DNA from: Actinomycetota bacterium
GTDB taxonomy: Bacteria; Actinomycetota; Geothermincolia; Geothermincolales; RBG-13-55-18
Reading direction: 5' to 3'
DNA: 64,000 nucleotides
Assembly (NCBI GenBank): GCA_014360655.1
Contig: JACIXC010000003.1
Span: forward strand, 62,001 to 126,000
A model generated the notes under the pieces. It was not told the origin of the DNA and did not search any database. It saw only the letters and a list, made by a program, of their open reading frames with translations. Position 1 is the first letter of the stretch. Each line of letters starts with the position of its first letter. Made by a program: the position numbers and the translations under genes. This document shows, piece after piece, positions 18,206 to 24,688 of this stretch.

Positions 18206-18317
18206 TAGCCAATCTCCTGAACGGAGATTTTTATTTTTCTACCCAGTATCCATGCGGGTTCTGGCGAAGGAACTGAAATCGTTTCAATCTCCTGAACGGA
18301 GATTTTTCCTTTTCTAC
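18206..18317 (-). CRISPR. Minimal CRISPR relic: two 37-bp repeats and one 38-bp spacer
   Basis: Repeats at 18206-18242 and 18281-18317 flank a 38-base spacer (18243-18280). Read on the minus strand the intact repeat begins GTAGAAAAGGAAAAATCTCC, contains a short palindrome (ATCTCC/GGAGAT) and ends in GGAGATTGAAAC, the ATTGAAAC end typical of type I and III repeats. The second repeat in that direction (18242-18206) matches until its last bases, which are changed. Degeneration of the terminal repeat's 3' end is normal at the leader-distal end of an array. No cas gene is in the window. Two repeats are the minimum, so it remains a candidate. Confidence 0.65.
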
Positions 18318-19380: not shown

Positions 19381-21084
19381 ATGGAGACGCCAAAAGCTGA
19401 CTTTAGAAGACGGCTAGAAGAAACCATGAAGGAGTACTCATATTCAGGAATCGAATCTGCCTTTGTAACATGGTTTGTAGATAACGCATATGCAGCTCCA
19501 AAGGACAAAAAAATAATCACGGGAGTACATTCAAACGACGGCGGTATAGACGCGGTAGTTTTCGAAGGTGATTATACCTATGTGATTCAAGGTGCATATA
19601 CAGAAGCATTCTTTAAGAGTAAGAAAGCTCCCGCGCTGAGCCCAAGCAAGTATACAAGCCTCAACGAAGTAAGGAGAAATTTCACTAGCGATCATGCGTT
19701 TAACAGTTACTTGGATACCGTCGCAAGACCACTTCATATTCCTTATAGAAAAATACGTAAGAATATGAGTAAGGATCCCAATTCCGTCATCTGGTTAATC
19801 ACCACATTAAATAGTAGGTCTCCTGCAGGGGAAAAGAGACTTAGAGACATAGATCCTACCAACTTCAAGTATGGAGTGGATAATCTAATGCTTTTTCAGC
19901 TGGCAGAAATTGACGCAACCCCCATGCCACTACCGATGAAGCTAACATTCAAAGAGAATCCAATTACCATAGATGACCGAGTAAAGGGCTTGAAATCCTA
20001 CGTTTTACAGGCCAGAGTCGTGGATTTCATTTCATACATTGAAGATGAGCAGGGTCTTCGTTGTCTAGCGAGAAATGTCAGGACAGAATTGCCGGACAAA
20101 GCTGCAAAACAGATTAGCGAGGGCATCAAAAATACATACGAACAAAACCCCGCGGACTTCTGGTACAGCCACAATGGTATTACAATGATTTGTACCAAGG
20201 CTGTATCAACCGGCAAACAAATGAGAATAGAAAACCCATTCATAATAAACGGGGCACAGACATTATTAGCCCTACGCAATTCAACGAAGCGAAATGATAG
20301 TGCATTTGTGCTCACCCGAATAATTGAAGTTCCCCCAGAGGTGGGACTCGCTGATAATTTCGTAAACGATATTATATGCCGCACAAACCAACAAAACCGC
20401 ATGTACTTATATGATTTAAGAGCGAATGATCGATTCCAAATTAAACTTGCACGCTATTTCCTCGATAAAAAAGTTCACTATGAGAGGAAAAGGGGAGAAT
20501 GGGCTTTAATAAAGCAACCAATGCGCGGCCGAGGCTATAAGAACCTAACGATCAAGCGTCTTGCTCAAATACGCGTGTGTTGCCTGGATAAAGAGGGAGG
20601 GGTGGAGGCGTCAAAGAAGACCATCGAAGATCTATTTAGAGATGAACGCTATAATGAGTTGTTTGGTGCTCCCTTTGAAGAGATATATTTCCAATATCGG
20701 ATTTACGAATTGCTACAGACAACGCTAAAGAATCCTATTAAGGGCAGCAGAACAGTGAGCAGAGAGCGCAGCCATGCAATGCTTTCTTGTCTAATGCTAC
20801 TCTGGGCATGTGTGGAAAATGACCAGAATATTCATAAATGGTATGATGCGGTTCTAAACAAACCTAGCAGACTTGATTGGGATCCAAAAAATCCCTTAGT
20901 AAAAACGATTGAAGATATGTTCAATGCGGTATGGAACAGGTGGATTCAGCTAGCTAGTAAAGATCCTAATCTAAGCGCAAACAACTTCTTCAAGAGCAAA
21001 GAACACAATCGTGAATTGCTTAAAGAATTCCAACGTAAATATCAGAAGAGAGTTAGGCAGGGATTTCAGAAAGCATTAAAGTAG
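19381..21084 (+). CDS. AIPR family protein (abortive infection phage resistance)
   Basis: Defence-type protein of 567 aa. The C-terminal two thirds match the AIPR family: FWYSHNGITMIC at 260-271, ENPFIINGAQTLLAL, and TNQQNRMYLYDLRAND. The N-terminal 80 residues look like the restriction-endonuclease-type fold seen in this family (SNDGGIDAVVFEGDYTYVIQ at 51-70). In most relatives that strand reads Q-x-K-Y, whereas here it is Q70-G-A72-Y, so the expected lysine is missing. GC content is far below the chromosome average, pointing to transfer. It is flanked by IS remnants. AIPR genes are known from phage-defence loci; the mechanism is inferred. Confidence 0.8.
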   Translation: METPKADFRRRLEETMKEYSYSGIESAFVTWFVDNAYAAPKDKKIITGVHSNDGGIDAVVFEGDYTYVIQGAYTEAFFKSKKAPALSPSKYTSLNEVRRNFTSDHAFNSYLDTVARPLHIPYRKIRKNMSKDPNSVIWLITTLNSRSPAGEKRLRDIDPTNFKYGVDNLMLFQLAEIDATPMPLPMKLTFKENPITIDDRVKGLKSYVLQARVVDFISYIEDEQGLRCLARNVRTELPDKAAKQISEGIKNTYEQNPADFWYSHNGITMICTKAVSTGKQMRIENPFIINGAQTLLALRNSTKRNDSAFVLTRIIEVPPEVGLADNFVNDIICRTNQQNRMYLYDLRANDRFQIKLARYFLDKKVHYERKRGEWALIKQPMRGRGYKNLTIKRLAQIRVCCLDKEGGVEASKKTIEDLFRDERYNELFGAPFEEIYFQYRIYELLQTTLKNPIKGSRTVSRERSHAMLSCLMLLWACVENDQNIHKWYDAVLNKPSRLDWDPKNPLVKTIEDMFNAVWNRWIQLASKDPNLSANNFFKSKEHNRELLKEFQRKYQKRVRQGFQKALK

Positions 21085-21487: not shown

Positions 21488-21504
21488 AGGATTCGGATTT
21501 ATGG

Positions 21505-21826
21505 ATAGCGTCAAGAAATTCGTGTCCGCCACCTAGCCTTCCTCCTCCAACCTCAATTTTGCAAAACCCCGGAGCCTCCTCTACTGAAGTCTTTCGTTCT
21601 TGTTCTTGAGGATAAGATGGAGAACGGAAAGAAGGCTCTCCTCCGAGGAGAAGCCTCGATGGTCTTGGTTCGCCTCTTCACCTTTTTGCCCGCTTTCTCC
21701 AGCTAGTTGGTGGTGTAGATATTCCTTGTGTTCACACCGCAGGAGAACACGGAAAGGACGAGGTTGCCCAGATCTACGGAAGCCCTCCTCATGCCCGGCA
21801 GTATGGCGGGGTAGAACTTTCAGCAT
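21505..21826 (-). mobile_element. IS256-family transposase remnant with one terminal inverted repeat
   Basis: The left end carries the terminal repeat ATAGCGTCAAGAAATTCGTG at 21505-21524, the same as in the element at 23716. Minus-strand frames give FYPAILPGMRRASVDLGNLV, then NIYTTN, a stop, KAGKKVKRRTKTIEA and SSEESLLSVLHLIL across frameshifts, the C-terminal third of an IS256 transposase. It keeps more of the gene than the other two copies, so it comes from a different parental or deletion form. Confidence 0.6.
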
Positions 21827-21945
21827 CGGTGATAAAAGTACAGAGATCAGCGAAATTAAAAGTCACCTTGGGAAGAGAGAGTCTCCCCGATTGTCATCGG
21901 CTACAACCCGGCAAGGGGTGTCCAATCACTACCAGGGAGGTACCG

Positions 21946-22110
21946 ATGATCAGCAAGGATGACTATATGGAAATCAAAGCACAACATGAGGGAGATGCCT
22001 ACAAGAAGTACCTCGCGCACAAGCTGGGAGTGCACCCCAGAACGATGACCAGGGTGCTTAAGTGGGGCGGCCCGCCGACGAGGAAGAGGCCAGACCGATT
22101 TTCGGAGCCC
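21946..22110 (+). pseudogene. IS21 family transposase (IstA) N-terminal fragment
   Basis: From an ATG with GGGAGG upstream the frame encodes MISKDDYMEIKAQHEG, AHKLGVHPRTMTRVL and PPTRKRPDR, the helix-turn-helix start of IstA-type transposases. After about 50 residues it runs into unrelated sequence belonging to an IS256-type fragment. The catalytic domain and istB are absent. Confidence 0.55.
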
Positions 22111-22434
22111 CCAATAAAAAGGAAGCCTTAAGGCGCTTCAATGCCCGGAGAAAGAAGTGGATCAAGGAGGAGGAACGGGCAGTGCGCTGCCTGGAGAAAG
22201 GACTCTACAGCTTCCTGCACTTCTATGATTTCCCCGAGGAGATGCGGAGGAAGATACGGACCACCAACATCCTAGAAAAGGCCATCCGGGAGGCGAGGAG
22301 AAGGGACTAGCCCCATGGGGCTATTCCCCAACGCCGACTCGGCCAACCGCATCTTCTACGGGTTCACTGACTATATGAACGAGAACTGGAGGGGAAGTCA
22401 CCTCAAGCAAATTTCAGCAGAATCTTTGACATGA
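22086..22434 (+). pseudogene. IS256-type transposase C-terminal fragment (second lineage)
   Basis: One frame (to 22310) gives KKEALRRFNARRKKW, FLHFYDFPEEMRRKIRTTN and ILEKAIREARRR. The sequence continues in another frame as MGLFPNADSANRIFYG and YMNENWRGSHLKQI. Together these match the Mutator-type transposase C-terminus (FYDFP...RTTN.IE...R.R, G.FPN..S). It differs from the IYTTNQLER copies nearby, so a separate IS was the source. The N-terminal and DDE parts are missing. Confidence 0.65.
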
Positions 22435-22718
22435 CCCACCTGTTAACCCGGATAATACAGGAGGTTGCTACTTTATATATAATATTTATAAGGGTTAAGC
22501 CGAAACTAGCTGGCACATGTGATTAATAATAAGGGTTAAAGCTGCATAAGAGCCGTGTGATAAGCACATAGTGGCATTCTCACACAAGGACGAGATTAAA
22601 GTTAATGAAGGCAGCTATTTTGAGAAATCATGGGCAGTACAAACATTGTCAATCATCAGATAGAGGCGTTAAGCGTATTGATCAATAAGGCGAATAGATC
22701 CCGAGCAAGGAGATAAAA
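22435..22718 (+). promoter_or_regulatory. AT-rich upstream region of the HNH-HIT gene
   Basis: AT-rich region with an 11-base direct repeat ATAAGGGTTAA at 22488-22498 and 22529-22539. A TATAAT sits at 22476-22481 inside TTTATATATAATATTTATA. These are plausible promoter and operator elements. No other gene is visible. Confidence 0.35.
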
Positions 22719-23684
22719 ATGACATACGATGAGCTGATCGACTTTCTGGAGAACCGCATGAGAATGAGCCACATTTACCAGCCTCTTTTGATAAAGAGTT
22801 TGATTGATTCCGGGGGTGCAGCGACAATCCGACAACTGGCCCAAGCCTTTCTGGCTCAAGATGAGAGCCAGATTATATTCTATGAAAAACGCATAAAACA
22901 GATGCCCCTAAAGGTTCTGAAAAACCACAAAGTAATAGTACAAGACGGCGAACTCGTAACTTTGAATACGGAGCGCTTAAATTTCCAGCAGAGATTAACC
23001 GTAAAGATGATATGTGAACAAAAAATGCAGGAGTTTTTAGGGAAAAAGGGCCTGTCCCTCTGGGATTATCGCCTAGGCGAAACGGAGCCAATTCCAGACA
23101 GCCTGCGCTATCAAGCCCTTAAAGCATCGGGCGGAAGATGCGCTTTATGTGGCGCTACCAAGAATGAGGCGCCGCTTGAAATAGACCACATCATTCCGCG
23201 TTCAAGAGGTGGGAAAAATGAGCTCGCCAACTTGCAGGTCCTCTGCTCGAAATGCAACAGGGCAAAGAGCAACAAAGACCGCACGGATTTCAGAAAGTCA
23301 TGCGATTCTAACCCAGAACCTGGATGCCCGTTTTGCTCACCACGTGAAATATTTGAAGAATATGGGAACGTGTATGCAATCAGAGATAAGCACCCGGTCA
23401 CTGCTGGGCACATGCTCATTATCCCCTATCGTCATATACCGGATTACTTTTCAATGAATGCGCGCGAAAAATCTGATTCGGATCGCCTGATTGTCTATCT
23501 GCGCAACAAGGCCATGACGGATGATCCATCGATTATGGGCTTCAATATCGGCACAAACTGCGGCATTGCAGCAGGGCAAACGATCTTCCATGCCCATCTT
23601 CATCTTATCCCACGCAGAAATGGAGATACGCCTAAGCCGCGAGGGGGGGTTAGGGGAGTAATTCCTTCAAGAATGTCATATTAA
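22719..23684 (+). CDS. HNH nuclease-HIT domain fusion protein
   Basis: Protein of 321 aa in three parts. Residues 1-130 are a helical, winged-helix-like region with no named family. Residues 138-186 are an HNH endonuclease motif: C141-x2-C144, EIDHIIPRSRGGKNE (Asp156, His157) and LQVLCSKCNRAKSNK (C176-x2-C179, Asn180). Residues 203-321 are a HIT nucleotide-hydrolase domain starting CPFC, with HPVTAGHMLIIPYRH and the catalytic triad motif HAHLHLI (His291, 293, 295). AAGGAG lies six bases before the ATG. GC is low and the gene sits between IS remnants near AIPR. A role in defence is inferred from context, not shown. Confidence 0.85.
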   Translation: MTYDELIDFLENRMRMSHIYQPLLIKSLIDSGGAATIRQLAQAFLAQDESQIIFYEKRIKQMPLKVLKNHKVIVQDGELVTLNTERLNFQQRLTVKMICEQKMQEFLGKKGLSLWDYRLGETEPIPDSLRYQALKASGGRCALCGATKNEAPLEIDHIIPRSRGGKNELANLQVLCSKCNRAKSNKDRTDFRKSCDSNPEPGCPFCSPREIFEEYGNVYAIRDKHPVTAGHMLIIPYRHIPDYFSMNAREKSDSDRLIVYLRNKAMTDDPSIMGFNIGTNCGIAAGQTIFHAHLHLIPRRNGDTPKPRGGVRGVIPSRMSY

Positions 23685-23715
23685 CAAATGGGATTCTCGC
23701 TTTCCCTACTATCGG

Positions 23716-24000
23716 ATAGCGTCAAGGAATTTGTGTCCATTGCTCTAGCCTTCCTCTGACGACACCAAATTGTTGAAACCCCGGAACCGTCTCTGTTGCA
23801 GCTTTTCGTTCTCAAATTTGAGTATGAGATAGAGCACGGATACGAGGCTCTCCTCCGAGGAGAAGCCTCGATGGTCTTGGTTCGCCTCTTCACCTTTTTT
23901 ACCCGCCCTCTCCAGCTGGTTGGTGGTGTAGATATAGGGACGCACCTGCTCCGAGTACTTGAGGAAGGTTAGGTCTCTGGAGCAAATTTCTTGACGCTAT
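23716..24000 (-). mobile_element. MITE-like 285-bp derivative of an IS256 element
   Basis: Both ends carry inverted repeats of about 23 bases (ATAGCGTCAAGGAATTTGTG at 23716; ATAGCGTCAAGAAATTTGCT read inwards from 24000). Between them, on the minus strand, lie FLKYSEQVRPYIYTTNQLER, GEEANQDHRGF after a frameshift, and SSEESLVSVLYLILKFENEK, the last 90 or so residues of an IS256-type transposase. No target duplication was evident at the ends. The same end-to-coding junction occurs at 15676, so this shortened form was itself copied. Confidence 0.65.
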
Positions 24001-24600: not shown

Positions 24601-24688
24601 TGGCGGAGGGGGCGGGATTCGAACCCGCGAGCCGTTGCCGGCCAATGGTTTTCAAGACCATCGCAATCGTCCGCTCTGCCACCCCTCC
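24601..24688 (-). tRNA. tRNA-Ser (UGA), CCA encoded
   Basis: Read on the minus strand, GGAGGGG pairs with CCCCTCC in the acceptor stem. The anticodon loop CTTGAAA contains UGA (complement at 24652-24654), followed by a long variable arm typical of class II serine tRNA and a T-arm with GGTTCGAATCC. Discriminator G and the CCA end are encoded (24601-24604). seryl-tRNA synthetase lies 1.3 kb away on the same strand. The 3' end faces the low-GC accessory region, a common integration arrangement. Confidence 0.95.

What the first reader, a model, noticed from the sequence alone, without database searches (positions are those of the whole stretch)
22719..23684. HNH nuclease fused to a HIT nucleotide hydrolase in a low-GC defence neighbourhood
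One 321-aa protein carries a complete HNH motif (C141, C144, D156-H157, C176, C179, N180) and then a complete HIT domain with the HAHLHLI active site. HIT enzymes cleave nucleotide phosphoanhydrides or AMP adducts; joined to a DNA nuclease this could couple nucleotide-signal hydrolysis, or removal of an adenylate, to DNA cleavage. The gene is foreign in composition, has its own promoter-like region with paired 11-base repeats, and sits near an AIPR gene and a CRISPR relic. I do not know a described defence system with this fusion. Function is inference.
Basis: partly seen in the sequence, partly recalled or inferred. Interest (0 to 1): 0.72.

Follow-up and report, generated by a model that had tools for sequence, protein, structure and literature searches.

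The report
Fused HNH nuclease–HIT hydrolase defence protein
This gene encodes a real, widely shared bacterial protein that joins a DNA-cutting domain to a nucleotide-cleaving (HIT) domain; its relatives repeatedly sit beside restriction and anti-phage genes, so it is probably an undescribed DNA-restriction component, though its chemistry is untested.

Summary
Window 22719-23684 (+) is one intact 321-aa protein with a winged-helix-like N-terminus (1-110), an HNH nuclease (141-193) and a HIT domain (208-301), both with full catalytic motifs. The fusion is no artefact: it recurs full length in about 57 other loci under at least 12 phylum labels, with the catalytic and zinc residues conserved. None of 97 relatives tested has it. 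It lies in a low-GC island ending at a tRNA-Ser where synteny with relatives breaks.

The defence reading gains support. The closest relative (60% identity) follows a MzaC-MzaD-MzaE-C5 methyltransferase-HNH run. Others lie beside SauUSI-like PLD-helicase-DUF3427 enzymes, SLFN-g3 helicases or HNH_2 nucleases. Two Cyanobiaceae share a 6.35-kb HNH-HIT/helicase/SauUSI-like cassette in unrelated flanks. Stand-alone relatives of the HIT domain precede separate HNH genes on two plasmids. Pfam, NCBIfam and PADLOC gave only domain-level matches, and no open-access paper found describes the fusion.

Best reading: an HNH restriction effector whose HIT domain hydrolyses a nucleotide signal, adduct or modified nucleotide. 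The HIT role is inference. Bonus: in 21 cyanobacterial loci, HNH-HIT and SauUSI-like genes bracket variable, apparently defence-related cargo inside nested, decayed copies of themselves.

The parts
22719..23684 (+). HNH-HIT fusion gene, 321 aa
   Evidence: full-length relatives
22719..23048 (+). N-terminal domain (aa 1-110), helical with a small beta wing, winged-helix-like; presumed DNA binding
   Evidence: AlphaFold2 pLDDT about 80-90; best PDB match is a winged-helix protein but not significant (F93, E=0.47)
23139..23297 (+). HNH nuclease domain (aa 141-193): C141/C144/C176/C179 zinc site, D156-H157, N171, N180
   Evidence: PF14279/PF01844; invariant residues
23325..23684 (+). HIT domain with C203-x2-C206, catalytic H291-A-H293-L-H295 and the GGVRGVIP..Y tail (aa 203-321)
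22707..22712 (+). Shine-Dalgarno AAGGAG
   Evidence: read directly
22488..22539 (+). paired 11-bp direct repeats ATAAGGGTTAA (22488-22498, 22529-22539) in an AT-rich upstream region
19381..21084 (+). AIPR-family gene (567 aa), AbiU-like; 26% identical to the MzaE beside the closest HNH-HIT relative
21503..22330 (+). IS256/Mutator-type remnant: IS end plus transposase C-terminal fragment (22062-22310)
23714..24000 (+). second IS256-type end (direct repeat of 21503-21722, about 80%) with inverted terminal copy 23983-24000
24601..24688 (-). tRNA-Ser(TGA); island boundary, nucleotide synteny with five family relatives stops here
18210..18317 (+). two CRISPR repeats, same repeat as the 39-copy array on contig C25

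Best explanation
A horizontally moving restriction-type defence effector. Shown: a conserved three-part protein with intact HNH and HIT catalytic sites, spread across phyla, and repeatedly located inside restriction/anti-phage loci (SauUSI-like PLD-helicase-DUF3427, SLFN-g3 helicase, HNH_2 nuclease, C5 methyltransferase, MZA genes, NUDIX). Inferred: the N-terminal domain contacts DNA, the HNH domain nicks or cuts invading (probably modified) DNA together with helicase or nuclease partners, and the HIT domain makes and hydrolyses a nucleotidyl-histidine intermediate. My preferred HIT role is hydrolysis of a small nucleotide (an infection-linked signal, a modified nucleotide or a nucleotidyl adduct) that gates or complements cutting. 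The recurring NUDIX neighbour, another nucleotide hydrolase, points the same way. In the window the gene stands alone, 1.6 kb behind an AIPR gene and between IS remnants, so it may be a stand-alone or eroded version.
For: Catalytic residues of both domains conserved in 51 sequences. Closest relative L001 (60%) follows MzaC (3e-118), MzaD (2e-23), MzaE (3e-73), C5 MTase (1e-126) and HNH (2e-85). In the window's own clade, an HNH_2 nuclease lies directly beside HNH-HIT in L001, L003 and L006; L002, 59% identical but not in the tree, has HNH_2 genes close downstream. Two Cyanobiaceae share a 6.35-kb, 90% identical cassette HNH-HIT / SLFN-g3 helicase / PLD-ResIII-DUF3427 (PADLOC mREase_IV 5e-262) in unrelated flanks. 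DUF3427 genes fall within 17 kb of HNH-HIT in 17 of 22 cyanobacterial genomes and within about 5 kb in 4 of 6 others. Cargo between the two genes read by eye as type I RM, SIR2-HerA-like and dGTPase-like genes. Stand-alone relatives of this HIT domain precede an HNH gene on two plasmids, and that HNH family sits beside BREX, CRISPR I-F and McrBC genes elsewhere. Patchy: 7/249 and 32/251 genomes in two families; absent from 97 relatives.
Against: No function has been measured for any member. In the window the only defence-like neighbours are one AIPR gene and the two CRISPR repeats. Most non-cyanobacterial relatives have no fixed partner, and enrichment against matched control regions is modest. 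No place covering 80% of the protein was found in 72,556 plasmids or 50,697 phages, unusual for a very mobile defence gene. Nothing directly shows what the HIT domain acts on.
Confidence: 0.6

Rival explanations
1. A DNA end-processing or repair enzyme: HNH nicks and the HIT domain removes 5'-AMP left by abortive ligation (aprataxin-like), and it sits in defence islands only because those islands collect DNA enzymes.
For: Aprataxin is a HIT enzyme that deadenylates DNA ends (PMC6043908, PMC4499129). The protein has a putative DNA-binding N-terminus.
Against: Very patchy, horizontally moving distribution with frequent pseudogenes in cyanobacteria, unlike a housekeeping repair enzyme. The HIT domain matches Hint/Fhit/Ap4A-type HIT proteins, with no aprataxin among the listed PDB hits.
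Confidence: 0.15
2. A selfish homing-type nuclease: HNH cuts related loci so that the cassette carrying it is copied in, and defence cargo rides along.
For: In 21 cyanobacterial loci all HNH-HIT copies lie upstream of all same-strand SauUSI-like copies. Outer HNH-HIT stubs keep the 5' end (31 vs 1) and outer SauUSI-like stubs keep only the 3' end (14 vs 0), as expected for repeated insertion or replacement inside older copies. Inter-stub DNA is shared between genomes and sometimes holds partner genes.
Against: No conserved target site or empty site was shown. In most non-cyanobacterial genomes searched the gene is single copy. Homing does not need a conserved HIT active site.
Confidence: 0.13
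3. A detoxifying HIT hydrolase (for example of phosphoramidate nucleotide antibiotics or modified dNTPs) to which an HNH domain is fused for DNA docking only.
For: HIT hydrolases give resistance to microcin C (PMC7157772); NUDIX neighbours in L020, L021, L033 and L041.
Against: HNH catalytic D156-H157, N171 and N180 are invariant, so the nuclease looks under selection.
Confidence: 0.07

Closest known systems
SauUSI-type (PLD-helicase-DUF3427) Type IV restriction
   Same: Recurrent neighbour of HNH-HIT, PADLOC mREase_IV up to 5e-262; SauUSI has PLD + NTPase + DUF3427 and cuts m5C/hm5C DNA (PMC3874153)
   Different: HNH-HIT itself has no helicase, PLD or DUF3427 domain; no SauUSI-like gene in the window
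HNH Type IV/II restriction nucleases (McrA-like; PADLOC HNH)
   Same: N-terminal domain plus C4-zinc HNH; restriction gene context
   Different: Carries a complete HIT domain; only domain-level similarity
MZA system (MzaC/D/E)
   Same: Closest HNH-HIT relative is in the same operon-like run as MzaC-MzaD-MzaE; an AIPR gene lies 1.6 kb upstream in the window
   Different: Window AIPR is AbiU-like, MzaE only 3e-4; no other MZA-type gene was found among the neighbour ORFs scanned with Pfam
Thoeris type II ThsC (HIT protein)
   Same: A HIT protein tied to anti-phage defence, proposed to act on the nucleotide signal (PMC8565338)
   Different: ThsC is stand-alone and accompanies Thoeris genes; here HIT is fused to HNH; score only 30 bits over 68 residues
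Hint/Fhit/Ap4A-phosphorylase HIT enzymes
   Same: Fold and HxHxH motif (PDB 5uvm, 3imi, 3ano)
   Different: Fused to HNH; conserved GGVRGVIP..Y tail
Plasmid HIT + HNH gene pairs (Polaromonas pPNAP03, Aromatoleum plasmid 2)
   Same: Related HIT protein encoded directly before an HNH nuclease gene
   Different: Two genes; the HNH protein is another family (31% over 51 residues)

Membership tests
HNH nuclease superfamily | zinc-binding cysteines, D/H catalytic pair and downstream N residues | tested here: met
   PF14279 56 bits, PF01844 54 bits; residues invariant in 51 sequences
HIT superfamily | HIT fold with complete H-x-H-x-H motif | tested here: met
   PF01230 55 bits; HAHLHLI 291-297; fold match to PDB HIT structures
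IscB/Cas9 RNA-guided nuclease | RuvC split around HNH; whole-protein model score | tested here: not met
   NF040563 58.9 bits against cut-off 175, only the HNH stretch 112-194
Septu PtuB | PtuB model match over the protein, PtuA partner | tested here: not met
   Only HNH-level matches, best 32 bits; no PtuA-like domain reported among the neighbour ORFs scanned with Pfam
Thoeris type II | HIT protein ThsC with ThsA and ThsB | tested here: not met
   Partial ThsC match 7e-8; no ThsA/ThsB-type domain among neighbour ORFs scanned
MZA system | MzaC (Z1), MzaD and MzaE beside each other | tested here: not met
   Window has one AIPR gene, MzaE only 3e-4; met in the relative L001
SauUSI-like Type IV enzyme | PLD + SF2 helicase + DUF3427 in one chain | tested here: not met
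   None in P0001; no homologue of the PLD/DUF3427 partner in the window
Anti-phage defence protein | reduces phage or plasmid entry | not testable with these tools
   needs experiment

The most novel reading that the evidence does not exclude
HNH-HIT plus a SauUSI-like helicase-nuclease form the two ends of a self-nesting defence cassette: the pair mediates or marks repeated replacement of the cargo between them, leaving 5' stubs of old HNH-HIT genes on one side and 3' stubs of old SauUSI-like genes on the other. The HIT domain supplies a new chemistry (nucleotidyl transfer or hydrolysis) to DNA cutting.
Probability: 0.13. Interest if true: 0.85.

Novelty: new variant of a known kind. Interest (0 to 1): 0.6.

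Why it matters
If right, it adds an undescribed enzyme pairing (DNA nuclease plus nucleotidyl-histidine hydrolase) to restriction-type immunity, found under at least 12 phylum labels and with no model of the whole protein among the library matches. It gives a concrete test of whether HIT chemistry gates or complements DNA cutting. The cyanobacterial loci offer a natural record of how a defence locus swaps its cargo.

Tried and rejected
Fusion as frameshift or assembly join: rejected. RNA-guided IscB/Cas9-type nuclease: rejected, HNH stretch only. Identity of the N-terminal domain: no Pfam match, a profile search of PDB gave nothing below E=0.07, Foldseek only weak winged-helix matches. AlphaFold domain packing not interpreted (pTM 0.52). 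Fixed operon partner for all members: not found. Invariance of MRMSHIYQP as a functional motif: set aside as search bias. The split at residues 185/186 in some Cyanobiaceae looked like an intron or intein; it resolved into decayed tandem copies. tRNA-Ser att duplication: none seen in the repeat list. An enrichment test with hand-picked families was dropped as circular and replaced by a PADLOC scan of randomly drawn neighbours against controls from the same contigs.

Full report
What is there. Window 22719-23684 (+) encodes an uninterrupted 321-aa protein with a Shine-Dalgarno sequence at 22707-22712. Pfam finds an HNH domain at 141-193 and a HIT domain at 208-301, both well over their cut-offs. 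NCBIfam and PADLOC give domain-level matches only: IscB 59 bits against a cut-off of 175, PtuB about 32 bits, ThsC 30 bits. AlphaFold2 (51 sequences, mean pLDDT 85.6, pTM 0.52) gives three domains whose packing is not resolved. The HIT part matches solved HIT enzymes. The N-terminal part is helical with a small wing; its best PDB match is a winged-helix protein, but not significant.

It is a real family. Seed-peptide scans returned 80 genome loci and 7 viral-contig loci. By my criteria 58 sequences, the window included, have full-length reading frames. The 51-row tree spans at least 12 phylum labels, some of them from metagenome bins. In 51 aligned members the HNH zinc cysteines, D156, H157, N171 and N180, the HIT cysteines C203/C206 and H231, H239 and H291 are invariant, and H293 and H295 are at least 90% conserved. 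Both enzymes therefore look under selection. The MRMSHIYQP block is also invariant, but MRMSHIYQ was a search seed, so this is partly ascertainment. Distribution is patchy: 7 of 249 genomes in the family of Yoonia sediminilitoris and 32 of 251 in the family of Synechococcus WH 5701, many of the latter decayed. None of 97 relatives of the window organism has the fusion. No place covering 80% of the protein was found in 50,697 phage or 72,556 plasmid records.

Local setting. GC falls to 0.42-0.57 at 19-25 kb against mostly 0.63-0.70 around. Nucleotide synteny with five members of the same family is conserved from the tRNA-Ser at 24601 rightwards and stops there, so the gene sits in a tRNA-associated variable island. 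It is bracketed by IS256/Mutator-type remnants (21503-22330 and 23714-24000), the ends of which recur elsewhere in the genome. Upstream on the same strand is an AIPR gene (19381-21084), AbiU-like in PADLOC. The CRISPR repeats at 18210 and 18285 are the same as those of a 39-repeat array on another contig.

Neighbours of relatives. The window protein falls in a well-supported clade with Bacillota, Neomarinimicrobiota and Bacteroidota members. The closest, L001, is the sixth gene of a tight run: MzaC, MzaD, MzaE (AIPR), C5 methyltransferase, HNH nuclease, HNH-HIT. Its MzaE is 26% identical to the window AIPR protein over 341 residues. HNH_2 nucleases lie directly beside HNH-HIT in L001, L003 and L006 and close downstream in L002, and a related HNH_2 type beside it in L011, L024, L038, L051, L064 and many cyanobacteria. 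SauUSI-like PLD-ResIII-DUF3427 proteins, SLFN-g3 helicases (PDC-S41) and NUDIX proteins (PDC-S07) recur. In two Cyanobiaceae genomes a 6.35-kb block at 90% identity holds exactly HNH-HIT, a 622-aa SLFN-g3 helicase and a 1052-aa SauUSI-like protein, with no alignable flanks within the 20 kb compared. Among 79 HNH-HIT genomes, DUF3427 genes lie within 17 kb of HNH-HIT in 17 of the 22 cyanobacterial genomes that have one, and close by in 4 of the 6 others. Within that cyanobacterial family, HNH-HIT genomes carry DUF3427 more often (23 of 32 against 22 of 219), though relatedness and genome size confound this. A check on 20 non-cyanobacterial genomes, 100 randomly drawn neighbours against 100 proteins from the same contigs far away, matched 18 PADLOC families against 2; roughly 9-10 proteins against 2, p about 0.02-0.03. 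The protein count is my estimate, because the tool tallies families and not proteins. That enrichment is modest.

Nested arrays. In 21 cyanobacterial loci every HNH-HIT copy lies upstream of every same-strand SauUSI-like copy. The innermost copies are near full length (mean HNH-HIT coverage 0.92), while outer HNH-HIT copies cover 0.36 on average. Of outer HNH-HIT stubs 31 keep only the 5' end and 1 only the 3' end; of outer SauUSI-like stubs 14 keep only the 3' end and none only the 5' end. Between the intact pair lie different genes, read by eye as type I R-M (L156), SIR2-HerA-like (L157) and dGTPase-like plus an AAA gene (L151); these readings were not confirmed by a family search. Inter-stub DNA is shared among genomes and sometimes holds a partner gene. 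This fits repeated replacement of cargo inside older copies. The loci share ancestry, so nominal p-values are not independent, and the mechanism is not shown.

HIT-HNH outside the fusion. The nearest stand-alone HIT proteins on plasmids include two, in Polaromonas pPNAP03 and Aromatoleum plasmid 2, that directly precede an HNH gene; four other plasmid HIT relatives that I looked at do not. That HNH family is different in sequence and sits beside BREX, CRISPR I-F and McrBC genes on other plasmids, sometimes with a SAM methyltransferase in the HIT position. This is independent, though limited, support for a functional HIT-HNH link.

Mechanism. Shown: conserved active sites, patchy cross-phylum spread and restriction-locus context. 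Inferred: DNA binding by the N-terminus, DNA cutting by HNH, and a HIT step through nucleotidyl-histidine at H293 (the position of the catalytic middle histidine of HIT enzymes, from general knowledge). Precedents for HIT roles are DNA deadenylation (aprataxin), phosphoramidate hydrolysis (PMC7157772) and a proposed role for ThsC on the Thoeris signal (PMC8565338). SauUSI, the known relative of the commonest partner, cuts m5C/hm5C DNA with ATP (PMC3874153), so modification-dependent restriction is the natural first test. The defence assignment is put at 0.6; the specific HIT role is far less certain.

Novelty. No paper found in the open-access library describes the fusion, but subscription journals are largely missing. 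The parts are known kinds; the pairing and its cyanobacterial architecture are new to the sources searched.

Noticed in passing
L150-L158, L161-L170, L068, L079: Cyanobacterial loci with nested, decayed HNH-HIT 5' stubs and SauUSI-like 3' stubs around variable cargo that looks like defence genes
   Followed up: partly
window 18210-18317: Two CRISPR repeats matching a 39-repeat array on contig C25 of the same genome
   Followed up: partly
window 21503-22330 and 23714-24000: IS256/Mutator-type remnants bracketing the gene in direct orientation; ends recur on contigs C3, C6 and C25
   Followed up: partly
window 24601: Nucleotide synteny with family relatives stops at tRNA-Ser(TGA), the likely island integration point; no att duplicate seen
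   Followed up: partly
L138, L141, L145, L147: A plasmid HNH family pairs with either a HIT gene or a class I SAM methyltransferase gene directly upstream, and sits beside BREX, CRISPR and McrBC genes in other plasmids
   Followed up: partly
L012:6302-7855, L044:9203-10426, L028:1349-2143: Recurrent neighbours of HNH-HIT (517, 407 and 264 aa) without any Pfam or PADLOC match
   Followed up: no
L020:11240-11929: A 229-aa gene that looks PLD-like by eye between the SLFN-g3 helicase and NUDIX genes downstream of HNH-HIT
   Followed up: no
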